Origin: Serratia plymuthica
GTDB lineage: Bacteria > Pseudomonadota > Gammaproteobacteria > Enterobacterales > Enterobacteriaceae
Length of the DNA stretch: 64,000 bases
Assembly (NCBI RefSeq): GCF_018336935.1
Contig: NZ_CP068771.1
Span: 4,340,001 to 4,404,000, forward strand
Reading direction: 5' to 3'
Both the position numbers and the translations under genes were made by a program. The number at the start of each line of letters is the position of its first letter. Position 1 is the first letter of the stretch. Shown here one piece after another: positions 20,625 to 25,263 of the stretch. The notes beneath the pieces were generated by a model, which saw only the letters and a program-made list of their open reading frames with translations, was not told the DNA's origin and did no database searches.

Positions 20625-21532
20625 TGTCCGCTTTCTCCGATTTTCAACACGATCCCGTACGCCGCCGCCTGCTGACCGCCATGGCGCTGTCGCCGCTGCT
20701 GTTCTCTTTACCGGGGCGCGCTGCGGTGACACCGCCCGACCTCACGCGCATCGTGGCGCTGGAATGGCTGCCGATTGAGCTGCTGCTGGCGCTGGGCGTC
20801 ACGCCGCTGGCGGTGGCGGATATCCATAACTACAACCTGTGGGTGGAAGAGCCGAAAATGCCGGCGTCGGTTATCGACGTGGGCCAACGCACCGAGCCGA
20901 ATCTGGAGTTGCTGCAACAACTGCGGCCTTCGCTGATGCTGCTGTCAAAGGGGTATGGGCCAACGCCGCAAAAACTGGCGCCAATCGCGCCGACGATGAG
21001 TTTTGGCTTCAACGACGGCAGCGGAAAACCACTGACGGTGGGCCGAAATTCGTTGCAGCAATTGGCGCAGCGGTTGGGGCTTGAGGCGCGCGCTGAACGG
21101 CATCTGATGCAGTTCGACCGGTTTATTCAGGATGCCCGCCAACGCCTGCATTCTTACACCAGGCAGCCGCTGCTGCTGTTCTCCTTGCTGGATACGCGGC
21201 ATGTGCTGATTATCGGCCAGAAAAGCCTGTTCCAGGAGGTGATGGATCAGCTTGGCATTCACAATGCCTGGGAAGGGGAAACCAACTTCTGGGGCACGGC
21301 GGTCGTGGGCATTGAGCGCCTGATTACGGTGAAAAATGCGCGGGCGATTTATCTCGACCACGGTAATCAGGCGATGATGGAAAAAGTCAGCTCGACGCCG
21401 TTGTGGCAGGCTTTGCCCTTTGTGCGTCAGAACCGACTGCGGCAGGTGCCGGCGGTCTGGTTCTACGGTGCGACGCTGTCGGCGATGCGTTTTTGCCATC
21501 TGCTGGAGCAGACGCAGGAGAGCTATTCATGA
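20624..21532 (+). CDS. fhuD: Periplasmic ferric hydroxamate-binding protein FhuD
   Basis: 302 residues. The N-terminus has RRRLLTAMALSPLL preceded by a polar stretch: a twin-arginine-like signal, as in E. coli FhuD. Family features include IVALEWLPIELLLALGV, the RTEPNLELL segment, the GETNFWG motif, and the PAVWFYGATLSAM block near the C-terminus. It delivers ferric hydroxamate from FhuA to FhuB. The ATGs of fhuD and fhuB each overlap the preceding stop by 1-4 nt. Confidence 0.95.
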   Translation: MSAFSDFQHDPVRRRLLTAMALSPLLFSLPGRAAVTPPDLTRIVALEWLPIELLLALGVTPLAVADIHNYNLWVEEPKMPASVIDVGQRTEPNLELLQQLRPSLMLLSKGYGPTPQKLAPIAPTMSFGFNDGSGKPLTVGRNSLQQLAQRLGLEARAERHLMQFDRFIQDARQRLHSYTRQPLLLFSLLDTRHVLIIGQKSLFQEVMDQLGIHNAWEGETNFWGTAVVGIERLITVKNARAIYLDHGNQAMMEKVSSTPLWQALPFVRQNRLRQVPAVWFYGATLSAMRFCHLLEQTQESYS

Positions 21533-23517
21533 GCGAGCGCATCCGGGTATTACCGCTGGCGTTGATCTTGGTATTGCTGGCGGCGTCGGGCGGCTTGACG
21601 ATCTACAACCTGTTGCAACAGTTGCCTTGGGCGTTGTGGGCGCAGGCGCTGAGCGCGCCGAATCACGACGATGTGCGTCAGATGCTGTTCCACTACAGCC
21701 TGCTGCCGCGGCTGTCGGTCTCCCTGTTGGCCGGCGCCGGGTTGGGGCTGGTCGGCGTGCTGTTCCAGCAGGTGTTACGCAATCCGTTGGCGGAGCCGGC
21801 GACGCTGGGCGTATCCGCCGGTGCGCAGCTCGGCCTGACCATCGCCACTTTGTGGATGCTGCCGGGCGGCGAGATGACCCGACAACTGGCGGCAATGGCA
21901 GGGGCGATCCTGGTCGGCGGGCTGGTGTTCGGCGTGGCCTGGGGCAAACGCATGTCGCCGGTGACGCTGATTCTGGCCGGCCTGGTGCTGGGATTATACT
22001 GCGGTGCGGTCAACAGCCTGTTGGCGCTGTTTAATTACGACCAACTGCAGGGATTGTTCCTGTGGAGCACAGGTGCGTTGAACCAGCAGGACTGGAGCAC
22101 TGCGCAATTTATCCTGCCGCGCCTGGTGGTGGCCGGGCTGTTGGCGGTGCTGCTGTTGCGCCCGTTGACGCTGCTGGGGTTGGACGACGGCGTGGCGCGC
22201 AATTTGGGGCTGGGGCTGTCGATGGCGCGTTTTTGCGCGCTGGCGGTGGCGATTATCTTCAGTGCGATGCTGGTGAATGCGGTGGGCGTGATCGGTTTTA
22301 TCGGTCTGTTTGCCCCCTTAATGGCGAAGATGCTGGGGGCGCGCCGGCTGGCGCACCGCATGATCCTGGCGCCGTTGCTGGGTGCTTTGCTGCTGTGGCT
22401 GACCGATCAGGTGATGATCTGGCTGACTCAGGTTTGGCGTGAGATCCCGACCGGGGCGGCGACCGCGCTGTTTGGCGCTCCGCTGTTGCTGTGGCTGCTG
22501 CCGCGCCTGCGTAGCGCCGCCACGCCGCCGCCGATGAACCTGGGCGACAAGGTACCGGCCGAACGCGGCCATCTGTTGGCGTGGGTGATGCTGGCAGGCG
22601 TTGTGTTAGCGGTCGGCATCGCCGTGGCGCTGATGTTCGGGCAGAACGCCGCCGGCTGGCACTGGAGCCACGGCGCAGAACTGGAGTCATTGATGCCGTG
22701 GCGTTGGCCACGGGTGCTGTCCGCGCTGGCGGCGGGCATGATGCTGGCGGTGGCCGGCACCTTAATCCAGAAGTTGACCGGCAACCCGATGTCCAGCCCG
22801 GAAGTGCTGGGGATCAGCTCCGGTGCGGCCTTTGGCGTGGTGGTGATGCTGTTTATCGTACCGGGCGATGCCTTCGGCTGGCTGCTACCCGCCGGCAGCC
22901 TGGGGGCGGCGGCGACGTTGCTGGTGATTATGGTCGCCGCCGGTCGCGGCGGTTTTTCTACCGAACGCATGCTGTTGGCCGGTATCGCGCTCAGCACGGC
23001 GTTTACCACCACCATTTTCCTGCTGCTGGCCAGCGGCGATCCGCGCATGGGCGGGCTGCTGACCTGGATTTCCGGCTCGACCTATTCGGTGACTTCGCAG
23101 CAGGCGATCCGCACCGCAGTCATTGCGGCAACGCTGATAGTGCTGGCGCCGCTGTGTCGCCGTTGGCTGACCATTCTGCCGCTGGGCAGCGCGACCGCTC
23201 GCTCGGTGGGCATTGCGCTGACGCCGGTGCGGGTGGCGATTCTCCTGCTGGCCGCCACGCTGACCGCCATGGCGACCTTGACCGTGGGGCCGCTGAGCTT
23301 TATCGGCCTGATGGCGCCGCATATGGCGCGCATGCTGGGCTTCCGCCGCGCATTGCCGCAGATGGTGATTGCCGCACTGCTGGGCGGCCTGCTGATGGTG
23401 TTCGCTGACTGGTGCGGCCGGATGGTGATGTTCCCGTACCAAATCCCCGCCGGGCTGCTGGCGACCTTTATCGGCGCGCCGTATTTCGTTTACCTGCTGC
23501 GTAAGCAAACCTCGTAA
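21529..23517 (+). CDS. fhuB: Ferric hydroxamate transporter permease FhuB (double-length)
   Basis: 662 residues from the ATG at 21529 (ATGA overlap with fhuD). The open frame extends upstream within fhuD but is not used. It is two fused FecCD-type permease halves (about 1-330 and 340-662), each with about ten TM segments and the conserved ATLGV/SPEVLGISSGA and GFIGL/SFIGLMAPH loops that contact FhuC. This double-length architecture is the normal one for FhuB. A strong terminator follows, closing the operon. Confidence 0.96.
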   Translation: MSERIRVLPLALILVLLAASGGLTIYNLLQQLPWALWAQALSAPNHDDVRQMLFHYSLLPRLSVSLLAGAGLGLVGVLFQQVLRNPLAEPATLGVSAGAQLGLTIATLWMLPGGEMTRQLAAMAGAILVGGLVFGVAWGKRMSPVTLILAGLVLGLYCGAVNSLLALFNYDQLQGLFLWSTGALNQQDWSTAQFILPRLVVAGLLAVLLLRPLTLLGLDDGVARNLGLGLSMARFCALAVAIIFSAMLVNAVGVIGFIGLFAPLMAKMLGARRLAHRMILAPLLGALLLWLTDQVMIWLTQVWREIPTGAATALFGAPLLLWLLPRLRSAATPPPMNLGDKVPAERGHLLAWVMLAGVVLAVGIAVALMFGQNAAGWHWSHGAELESLMPWRWPRVLSALAAGMMLAVAGTLIQKLTGNPMSSPEVLGISSGAAFGVVVMLFIVPGDAFGWLLPAGSLGAAATLLVIMVAAGRGGFSTERMLLAGIALSTAFTTTIFLLLASGDPRMGGLLTWISGSTYSVTSQQAIRTAVIAATLIVLAPLCRRWLTILPLGSATARSVGIALTPVRVAILLLAATLTAMATLTVGPLSFIGLMAPHMARMLGFRRALPQMVIAALLGGLLMVFADWCGRMVMFPYQIPAGLLATFIGAPYFVYLLRKQTS

Positions 23518-23669: not shown

Positions 23670-23675
23670 TATACT
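23670..23675 (+). promoter_or_regulatory. Candidate -10 of the hok mRNA promoter
   Basis: A perfect TATACT hexamer. The predicted start, 6-7 nt downstream, is at 23681-23682, exactly the 5' edge of the GGGTGCTCTGGATC segment that can pair with the mRNA 3' region. The -35 region is poor, so the promoter may depend on other features. Confidence 0.45.
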
Positions 23676-23726
23676 GCGCGCGGGTGCTCTGGATCTTTCG
23701 TCCCGAGCATTTGTAAGGGATAGAAA

Positions 23727-23780
23727 GAGAAAAGCCCCGTGTCGATATACATCAACCCGAGGCCAACTCTAACGCCAGAC
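23727..23780 (-). ncRNA. Candidate Sok-type antisense RNA
   Basis: On the minus strand, a promoter (TTGCCT, 17 bp, TAACCT) predicts a start near 23780. The RNA would end in an imperfect hairpin (arms at 23734-23763, GCCTCGGG... and ...CGGGGC) followed by TTTTCTCT. It is about 54 nt long and complementary to the region containing the mok start, upstream of hok. This matches the architecture of Sok RNAs (about 64 nt, terminator-like 3' stem, target at mok translation initiation). Expression is inferred, not shown. Confidence 0.6.
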
Positions 23781-23831
23781 AACGTTAGGTTAGCTTCTTA
23801 CCCGCCGAGAGGCAAGGAGAAGGAAGTATGA
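23739..23831 (+). CDS. Candidate mok leader ORF overlapping hok
   Basis: A 30-codon frame starting with GTG at 23739 and ending in TGA at 23829-23831. The TGA overlaps the hok ATG (GTATGATG). The start lies inside the predicted Sok target. In hok/sok systems, translation of hok is coupled to an overlapping mok frame that the antisense RNA blocks. In plasmid R1 the mok frame runs into hok, whereas here it stops at the hok start. The purine stretch AAAGAGAAAA upstream is only a weak ribosome site. Tentative. Confidence 0.4.
   Translation: MSIYINPRPTLTPDNVRLASYPPRGKEKEV
23787..23815 (-). promoter_or_regulatory. Candidate sok promoter
   Basis: Reading the minus strand: TTGCCT at 23815-23810, a 17-bp spacer and TAACCT at 23792-23787. 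The spacing is ideal. It lies between the hok start and the mok region, as expected for a promoter driving an antisense RNA toward the leader. Confidence 0.55.
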
Positions 23832-23983
23832 TGCCGAACAAAGGAAGTGTCGTAAAACTGGTCGTTATTTGTGCCACTGTAATATCACTGGAATGGATGA
23901 CACGCAGCAAACTTTGTGAGCTGCGGATCCGATCGGGCAACACGGAAGTTGCGACCATTCTGGCTTACGAATCCAAAAGGTAA
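23828..23983 (+). CDS. Hok/Gef-family type I toxin
   Basis: 51 residues, within the Hok size range. It has an N-terminal membrane segment (about 9-21, VKLVVICATVIS), then a positively charged stretch with the family signature TRxxLCELR (25-33), and the C-terminal AYESKR. These correspond to the TRKSLCEIR and AYES motifs of Hok. By family it inserts in the inner membrane and depolarises it. AAGGAG lies 8-10 nt upstream of two adjacent ATG codons; the second (23831) is an alternative start. The leader carries a mok-like frame and the antisense RNA signals. It lies between the fhu operon and metK. No other gene is near, so it is a stand-alone chromosomal locus. Confidence 0.88.
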   Translation: MMPNKGSVVKLVVICATVISLEWMTRSKLCELRIRSGNTEVATILAYESKR

Positions 23984-24034
23984 GGCAACCCAACGGCGGG
24001 GGCGTTGCTCCCGCCTGTTGGTTGTTTGAGTGTG

Positions 24035-24049
24035 GATCCACGAGCACCC
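24035..24049 (+). promoter_or_regulatory. Fold-back element in the hok mRNA 3' region
   Basis: GATCCA and GAGCACCC, separated by one bulged C, are complementary to GGGTGCTCTGGATC at 23682-23695. This 14-bp pairing would join the predicted 5' end of the hok transcript to its 3' region. Such end-pairing (fbi/tac) keeps full-length hok mRNA translationally inert until 3' processing. A hairpin (about 23986-24027, arms near GGCGGGGGC and GCTCCCGCC) lies between hok and this element. Confidence 0.6.
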
Positions 24050-24063
24050 ATCTGCTAAAAACA

Positions 24064-24091
24064 AAAACGGCGAGCCCAGGCTCGCCGTTTT
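24064..24091. terminator. Bidirectional terminator, metK and hok transcripts
   Basis: A perfect 12-bp stem, AAAACGGCGAGC / GCTCGCCGTTTT, with a CCAG loop. T-rich flanks follow on the minus strand (GTTTTTG) and, less so, on the plus strand. It ends metK and could end the hok mRNA at about 410 nt. Confidence 0.85.
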
Positions 24092-24108: not shown

Positions 24109-25263
24109 TTATTTCAGGCCGGCGGCATCGCGCAGCAATTCTGCTTTGTCGGTCGCCTCCCAAGGGAAGTGCTCACGACCGAAGTGGCCGTAGGCTGCGG
24201 TTTCGCGGTAGATCGGTTGCAGCAGGTCCATCATCTGGATCAGGCCGTATGGGCGCAGATCGAAGAACTCACGCACCAGCAGGGTCAACTGTTCGGTAGG
24301 CACTTTCTCGGTACCGAAGGTTTCCACCATGATCGAGGTTGGCTCCGCCACGCCGATGGCGTAGGAAACCTGGATCTCGCAACGGTCGGCCAGGCCGGCA
24401 GCAACGATGTTTTTCGCCACGTAACGCGCCGCATACGCCGCTGAACGGTCAACCTTGGACGGGTCCTTACCGGAGAACGCACCGCCGCCGTGACGGGCCA
24501 TGCCGCCGTAGGTATCCACGATGATTTTACGCCCGGTCAGACCGCAGTCGCCCATTGGGCCACCGATAACGAAACGGCCGGTCGGGTTGATGTGGTATTT
24601 GGTGCTCGCGCTCAGCCATTCGGTAGGCAGAACCGGCTTGATGATCTCTTCCATCACTGCTTCTTGCAGATCTTTCAAAGAGATATCTTCGGAGTGCTGG
24701 GTGGACAACACCACTGCGTCGATGCCGACGATTTTGCCGTCGTCATACTGGAAAGTGACCTGGCTTTTTGCATCCGGACGCAGCCACGGCAGGGTGCCGT
24801 TTTTACGTACTTCGGCCTGGCGCTGCACCAGACGGTGCGCGTAGGTCACAGGCGCAGGCATCAGCACGTCGGTTTCATTGGTGGCATAGCCAAACATCAG
24901 GCCCTGGTCGCCGGCACCCTGTTCCAGCGGATCGGTACGGTCAACGCCCTGATTGATATCCGGGGATTGCTTGCCGATGGCGCTCAGTACGGCACAGGAG
25001 TTGGCGTCAAAACCCATATCCGAATGAACATAGCCGATTTCACGCACGGTTTGACGGGTGATTTCTTCGATATCTACCCAAGCGCTGGTAGTGATTTCAC
25101 CACCGACCAGCACCATGCCGGTTTTCACGTAGGTTTCGCAGGCTACGCGCGCTTTCGGATCCTGTTCCAGGATGGCATCAAGAACGGCATCGGAGATCTG
25201 ATCGGCAATTTTATCGGGATGCCCTTCGGAGACGGACTCGGACGTGAATAGGTGTTTAGCCAT
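24109..25263 (-). CDS. metK: S-adenosylmethionine synthase MetK
   Basis: 384 residues, the E. coli length. It forms AdoMet from methionine and ATP with release of phosphate and pyrophosphate. Seen: the ATP-site motif GHPDKIADQ near the N-terminus, the hexapeptide-like GAGDQG(LMFGYAT), and the phosphate loop [17 protein letters not shown] MetJ-type operator lies 232 bp upstream of the ATG, with a repeat element between them, so the mRNA should have a leader of about 220 nt. It is divergent from speA, as in E. coli. Confidence 0.98.

What the first reader, a model, noticed from the sequence alone, without database searches (positions are those of the whole stretch)
23670..24091. Complete-looking chromosomal hok/mok/sok type I toxin-antitoxin locus
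The toxin, antisense promoter, antisense terminator, overlapping mok frame and 5'-3' mRNA complementarity all occur together in the right order. Seen: a 51-residue Hok-like peptide (TRxxLCELR and AYES motifs); a minus-strand promoter TTGCCT-17-TAACCT; an antisense hairpin followed by TTTT; a GTG-initiated 30-codon frame whose TGA overlaps the hok ATG; and a 14-bp pairing, with one bulge, between 23682-23695 and 24035-24049. A TATACT places the mRNA start at the first base of that pairing. This consistency suggests an intact, regulated locus and not a decayed remnant. It differs from plasmid R1 in that the mok frame ends at the hok start.
Basis: partly seen in the sequence, partly recalled or inferred. 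Interest (0 to 1): 0.8.

Follow-up and report, generated by a model that had tools for sequence, protein, structure and literature searches.

The report
Serratia hok/sok toxin-antitoxin locus
This is an ordinary-looking chromosomal copy of the known hok/sok self-toxin switch, kept at one site in many Serratia genomes, but the small leader gene that should turn the toxin on has ACG where several relatives have the start codon AUG.

Summary
The finding is real. 23682-24091 is a chromosomal hok/sok type I toxin-antitoxin locus between fhuB and metK. Hok matches Pfam HOK_GEF, the leader matches Rfam sok, and the mRNA folds far better than shuffles with its ends paired. A hok locus lies beside metK in at least 20 of 30 genomes of the genus. 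Sok promoter, Sok hairpin, end pairing and hok-SD helix are conserved across 52 Serratia-type loci, and metK-linked Hok looks under purifying selection.
Two points weaken "complete, intact". First, the GTG at 23739 read as the mok start is GTG in 8 of 52 loci and GAG in 44. The position aligned with the annotated E. coli mokC start is 33 nt downstream (23772). It holds ACG in 44 of 52 loci and AUG in 8, with the pairing base changed to match. Second, this genome's Hok has three amino-acid changes and no silent one against an S. liquefaciens copy, one placing Glu in the predicted membrane helix.
A new member of hok/sok. Whether ACG starts mok is open; expression and toxicity are untested.

The parts
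23682..24091 (+). hok mRNA (predicted full length, about 410 nt)
   Evidence: fold z -6.57; PMC5668327 gives 398 nt for R1 (passages read)
23670..23675 (+). -10 element TATACT of the hok promoter; start predicted near 23682
   Evidence: sequence; ATATACTGCG upstream of metK-flagged loci; no consensus promoter found
23682..23712 (+). 5' hairpin that can form in the nascent RNA (metastable hairpin candidate)
   Evidence: -13.6 kcal/mol, z -1.65 (14 of 200 shuffles as good)
23682..23695 (+). tac-like 5' arm of the end-to-end pairing
   Evidence: cols 1-14 of A2; 14 bp with 24035-24049
24035..24049 (+). fbi-like 3' arm of the end-to-end pairing (bulged C 24041)
23759..23762 (+). mok Shine-Dalgarno GAGG
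   Evidence: 52 of 52 loci; aligned with the GAGG before the annotated mokC ATG
23772..23774 (+). ACG at the position aligned with the mokC start codon (-56 from hok)
   Evidence: ACG 44 / ATG 8 of 52
23772..23831 (+). mok frame from that position; TGA overlaps the hok ATG
23739..23741 (+).
   Evidence: GTG 8 / GAG 44 of 52
23769..23788 (+). mok start hairpin CUAACG-CCAGACAA-CGUUAG (Sok target loop candidate)
   Evidence: pair col 98/110 CG:44 UA:8
23727..23780 (-). Sok antisense RNA (about 54 nt, predicted)
   Evidence: fold; annotated SokC 59, SokB 57, SokE 60 nt
23734..23763 (-). Sok terminator hairpin; per locus 13 of 13 pairs on the minus strand in 40 of 52 and 12 in 12 of 52, here 12 (G.A at 23740)
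23810..23815 (-). sok -35 TTGCCT
   Evidence: 52 of 52 loci
23787..23792 (-). sok -10 TAACCT
   Evidence: TAACCT 27, TAACTT 24, TAGCCT 1 of 52; spacer 17 in all
23793..23827 (+). helix that hides the hok Shine-Dalgarno
   Evidence: cols 119-153 of A2
23828..23983 (+). hok, 51 aa
   Evidence: PF01848 63.5 bits; dN/dS 0.17 among metK-linked copies
23995..24015 (+). hairpin after the hok stop codon
   Evidence: covarying pairs cols 325-354
24064..24091 (.). hairpin between hok and metK, likely bidirectional terminator
   Evidence: sequence and fold; not flagged by the scan

Best explanation
A vertically kept chromosomal hok/sok locus at the fhuB-metK junction. The mRNA starts near 23682. Its ends pair (23682-23695 with 24035-24049), which keeps the full-length RNA silent; trimming of the 3' end would release it. 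Sok (about 23780 to 23727, minus strand) then covers the mok ribosome site and prevents mok, and so hok, from being translated. The hok Shine-Dalgarno sits in a helix that mok ribosomes must open; they would stop at the TGA overlapping the hok ATG and restart there. In this lineage mok starts inefficiently, at the ACG (23772) and/or the in-frame GTG (23739), so toxin output is probably low. Shown: sequence anatomy, conservation, covariation, a low dN/dS of Hok. Inferred from plasmid R1: 3' trimming, Sok action, translational coupling. Not shown: expression, start codon used, toxicity.
For: Hok: PF01848 63.5 bits. Leader: Rfam sok 89.8 bits, E 9.7e-19. mRNA fold z -6.57 with ends paired. Consensus fold of 52 loci recovers the end pairing, the start hairpin and the hok-SD helix; 15 of 88 predicted pairs have a change on both sides. 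sok -35 identical in 52 of 52, spacer 17 in 52 of 52. Three sense-strand C.A/A.C mismatches of the Sok hairpin are G.U pairs in Sok (in 52, 51 and 44 of 52 loci); per locus 12-13 of 13 positions pair in the antisense and 9-10 in the sense strand. metK-linked Hok dN/dS 0.17 over 120 pairs of 16 unique sequences. Beside metK in at least 20 of 30 genus genomes. The mok frame read from the ACG ends at +3 in 23 and +6 in 2 of 32 loci of this hok type. Annotated E. coli mokC and mokB start 8-10 nt from the Sok 5' end.
Against: No expression data. No strict sigma-70 promoter. No canonical mok start at the aligned position. From the ACG the frame closes before hok in 7 of 32 loci of this type: S. plymuthica L019 at -18 and six second copies at -35. 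The window's GTG breaks one pair of the Sok hairpin. Hok of this genome differs from S. liquefaciens L005 by 3 nonsynonymous and 0 synonymous changes, one placing Glu where 111 of 112 Hoks examined have an uncharged residue. One metK-linked relative (L026) has no full Hok ORF, and L043 (S. oryzae) has a 1-nt insertion late in hok and no 45-53 aa ORF by the test.
Confidence: 0.75

Rival explanations
1. A muted locus: RNA anatomy and hok are retained, but loss of a usable mok start leaves hok essentially untranslated, and this genome's copy has begun to decay.
For: ACG instead of AUG; no ATG/GTG/TTG-started ORF reaching hok in 29 of 51 Serratia-type loci against 4 of 113 others (after moving four misfiled rows 29 of 49 against 4 of 115); 3 nonsynonymous and 0 synonymous changes incl. 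a Glu in the predicted membrane helix; the third copy of this genome is truncated.
Against: Low dN/dS of metK-linked Hok as a whole; start hairpin, Sok promoter and hok-SD helix kept across species.
Confidence: 0.25
2. mok has moved upstream: the GTG at 23739 (ATG at -83 in L003) is the working start in these lineages.
For: GTG frame open to the hok ATG in the window, L004, L005, L006; L003 has an ATG six bases downstream in the same frame.
Against: GAG in 44 of 52 loci and in E. coli hokC; the change weakens the Sok hairpin; no strong Shine-Dalgarno by eye; the frame upstream of the ACG is closed in L042 and L043.
Confidence: 0.2
3. A recently acquired plasmid or phage fragment.
Against: All 5000 plasmid records kept and all 29 phage records match at under 60% identity, whereas orthologues sit at the same junction across Serratia.
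Confidence: 0.03

Closest known systems
hok/mok/sok of plasmid R1
   Same: Order of parts, end-paired mRNA, antisense RNA over the mok ribosome site, hok translation dependent on mok (R1 facts from PMC4147584, PMC5668327, PMC8309996, passages read)
   Different: The R1 sequence itself was not fetched here.
E. coli K-12 hokC/mokC/sokC and hokB/mokB/sokB
   Same: Aligned leader, Sok placement, chromosomal setting
   Different: They have ATG for mok; mokC is in frame with hokC and mokB ends inside hokB, here mok ends on the hok start codon
Erwinia amylovora chromosomal hok-sok
   Same: Chromosomal enterobacterial hok-sok, lethal on strong overexpression (PMC7821729, passages read)
   Different: Sequence not compared here
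Second Serratia hok type (MQQ-type, L001 in the same genome)
   Same: Same leader architecture, about 75% DNA identity for L001
   Different: Other genomic site for L001; AUG in 8 of the 15 rows of its tree branch; mok frames end at -23 to +88 in those 15 rows, none at +3

Membership tests
hok/sok type I toxin-antitoxin | Hok/Gef-family membrane peptide | tested here: met
   PF01848 63.5 bits against cut-off 22. The NCBIfam Hok-family and HokA models are hit only below their cut-offs (55 against 73, 51 against 89).
hok/sok type I toxin-antitoxin | Leader of the sok/hok RNA family | tested here: met
   RF01794 89.8 bits, gathering 59
hok/sok type I toxin-antitoxin | Antisense Sok gene over the mok ribosome site | tested here: met
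   sequence level only: promoter hexamers and antisense-specific hairpin conserved in 52 loci; strict promoter scan negative
hok/sok type I toxin-antitoxin | 5'-3' end pairing of the mRNA | tested here: met
   pairs nearly invariant, so no covariation support for this helix
hok/sok type I toxin-antitoxin | Overlapping mok reading frame covered by Sok | tested here: met
   open frame 23739-23831 or 23772-23831 under Sok and ending on the hok ATG
hok/sok type I toxin-antitoxin | Canonical mok start codon at the position of the relatives (usual, but not universal: 73 of 113 non-Serratia-type loci) | tested here: not met
   ACG at the aligned position; GTG 33 nt upstream only in a subset. E. coli hokE also lacks an ATG there.
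hok/sok type I toxin-antitoxin | Sok RNA and hok mRNA are made; Sok represses | not testable with these tools
   needs RNA-seq or northern
hok/sok type I toxin-antitoxin | Hok is toxic in the cell | not testable with these tools
   needs expression in laboratory E. coli

The most novel reading that the evidence does not exclude
Serratia hok/sok loci run on a natural ACG start codon for mok. The start codon is locked in the Sok target hairpin, and AUG/CAU was exchanged for ACG/CGU (or back) at least twice as a compensated pair, so selection kept the RNA hairpin over start-codon strength and thereby set a very low toxin output: a chromosomally tamed hok.
Probability: 0.25. Interest if true: 0.6.

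Novelty: new member of a known kind. Interest (0 to 1): 0.35.

Why it matters
The locus itself is ordinary. The compensated start-codon change makes a testable point: how a chromosome can keep a complete toxin-antitoxin RNA machine while turning its key translational step down, and whether ACG can serve as a regulated natural start codon in bacteria.

Tried and rejected
Tried: (1) literature on hok/sok in Serratia sensu stricto: none of the 5 titles listed and of the 20 titles shown of 72 is about it; PMC7725324 (passages) concerns Serratia sp. ATCC 39006, whose seven type I toxins are of the SymE family. (2) Non-AUG mok starts in print: the listings show no title on it; these are listings of an open-licence library, and subscription papers on hok (Thisted and Gerdes 1992; Pedersen and Gerdes 1999; Steif and Meyer 2012, recalled) were not seen, so absence from print is not shown. 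(3) A recent phage or plasmid origin: disfavoured. (4) ATGA coupling unique to this locus: rejected. (5) Other frames as mok: 29 of 51 Serratia-type loci have no ATG/GTG/TTG frame reaching hok.

Rows dropped: 26 of 220 hits without a recognised Hok ORF, then duplicates down to 164, before the mok survey. In that survey L148, L114 and L172 were filed as Serratia-type, and L194 as other, by a sequence signature, wrongly. Before alignment A2 the decayed L026, the window (same DNA as L002) and seven loci of other types were left out, and duplicates collapsed to 52; one of the 52 (L152) is from another genus of the family. For dN/dS, 4 of 20 metK-flagged rows were not used: L025 (other hok type), L042 (different length), L043 (no ORF) and L004 (same hok as L005). 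The Glu count used 112 of 127 unique Hok proteins that matched the anchor pattern.

Full report
What is there. Between fhuB (21403-23517, +) and metK (24109-25263, -) lies a 410-nt unit. Its ORF 23828-23983 is a Hok/Gef peptide (PF01848, 63.5 bits). Bases 23682-23830 match the Rfam sok family on the plus strand (89.8 bits, E 9.7e-19 over the 64-kb window). That match starts at the predicted first base of the hok mRNA and ends at the hok start, so the model describes the hok leader and not the Sok strand. The first 46 nt alone fold into a 5' hairpin (z only -1.65), a candidate for a transient structure of the nascent RNA.

Is it kept? In the host genome three sok-family loci exist: this one, a paralogue with an intact Hok ORF at C1:717166 (L001), and a third at C1:5174783 whose hok is cut short. 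In the genus set, 25 of 30 genomes have a Hok-family match, and 26 of 30 a sok-family match at E <= 1e-4, 24 of 30 over the family cut-off. By tblastn for 17 genomes (genome handles; L037 assigned to G012 by its contig length) or by a metK-end string for three more, a hok locus lies beside metK in 20 of 30; for the other 10 I did not show it. Of those 20, L026 lacks a full Hok ORF. Named metK-linked relatives include records called S. liquefaciens (a MAG), S. plymuthica, S. marcescens, S. ureilytica, S. bockelmannii, S. oryzae and Serratia sp. Ag1. Among 16 unique metK-linked hok sequences dN/dS is 0.17 (ratio of means, 120 pairs). RNA structure also restrains these codons, so this is a rough figure.

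RNA conservation. In an alignment of 52 Serratia-type loci (A2) RNAalifold recovers the end pairing, the start hairpin and the helix hiding the hok Shine-Dalgarno; 15 of 88 pairs show changes on both sides. The end pairing is nearly invariant, so it is conserved but has no covariation support. The Sok hairpin (23734-23763) gives a strand test. Three interior positions are C.A or A.C mismatches in the mRNA but U.G pairs in the antisense RNA, in 52, 51 and 44 of 52 loci. Per locus, 13 of 13 positions pair on the antisense strand in 40 and 12 in 12 of 52; on the sense strand 10 in 50 and 9 in 2. The structure is therefore built for Sok. The sok -35 is TTGCCT in 52 of 52, the -10 TAACCT, TAACTT or TAGCCT (27, 24, 1), spacer 17 in all. 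A strict promoter scan nevertheless finds nothing.

The mok start. In E. coli K-12 the annotated mokC and mokB start with ATG 57 and 58 nt before hok and 8 and 10 nt from the Sok 5' end. In the alignment the mokC ATG and the ATG of six of six plasmid or phage loci fall on window position 23772, -56 from hok and 9 nt after GAGG; mokB's ATG is two columns away and hokE has none. Here that codon is ACG. Among 52 Serratia-type loci it is ACG in 44 and ATG in 8; codon 23739 is GTG in 8 and GAG in 44; each trait needs at least 2 changes on the tree. The middle base pairs with the other arm of the hairpin, C-G in 44 and U-A in 8, none broken. So the hairpin was kept while the start codon changed. In a survey of 164 unique loci with a Hok ORF, an ATG/GTG/TTG frame reaching hok is missing in 29 of 51 Serratia-type loci and 4 of 113 others (after moving four misfiled rows, 29 of 49 and 4 of 115). 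The rows are related, so this is no probability. Read from the ACG, the frame ends at +3 on the hok ATG in 23 of 32 loci of this hok type and at +6 in 2; it closes earlier in 7: at -18 in S. plymuthica L019, and at -35 in six second copies with a 1-nt deletion (L012, L014, L027, L031, L039, L207).

How it likely works. By analogy with R1 (PMC4147584, PMC5668327 and PMC8309996; passages read): silent end-paired mRNA, 3' trimming, refolding, then either Sok binding or mok-coupled hok translation. Here coupling would be stop-restart at ATGATG. Low mok initiation would give low Hok. None of these steps was observed.

Is this copy healthy? Against S. liquefaciens L005 this Hok has 3 nonsynonymous and 0 synonymous changes. 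One puts Glu into the predicted membrane helix, where 111 of 112 Hoks examined have an uncharged residue. Three changes are too few for a test, but they argue against calling the locus intact.

Verdict. A genuine hok/sok member, ordinary in kind; I found no description of it in the searches named under Tried and rejected. The compensated ACG is the one point worth following.

Noticed in passing
L195 1-901 (host genome C1:5174600-5175500): Third sok-family locus of the host genome; its hok ORF leaves the Hok sequence after about 20 residues. The following stretch resembles the 3' end of L152 by eye, perhaps a repeat element.
   Followed up: partly
L009, L010, L012, L013, L014, L027, L028, L031, L034-L036, L038, L039, L207: Second hok copies of the same type in several Serratia genomes; where the flanks were long enough to see (L034, L038, L039) they lie downstream of speA. 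Distance to the other copy is about 5.8 kb in several genomes and up to about 28 kb. Six have a 1-nt deletion in the mok region; L207 has a stop in hok.
   Followed up: partly
L023, L024, L025: Loci whose leader resembles the window's type but whose Hok is of the MQQ type, suggesting recombination between paralogues.
   Followed up: no
L020: Three tandem hok/sok copies 478 nt apart in one genome.
   Followed up: no
G038: One genome of the family with 14 sok-family matches.
   Followed up: no
window 23682-23830 (Rfam RF01794): The family is named for the antitoxin Sok, but its match lies on the hok mRNA strand and spans the hok leader.
   Followed up: partly
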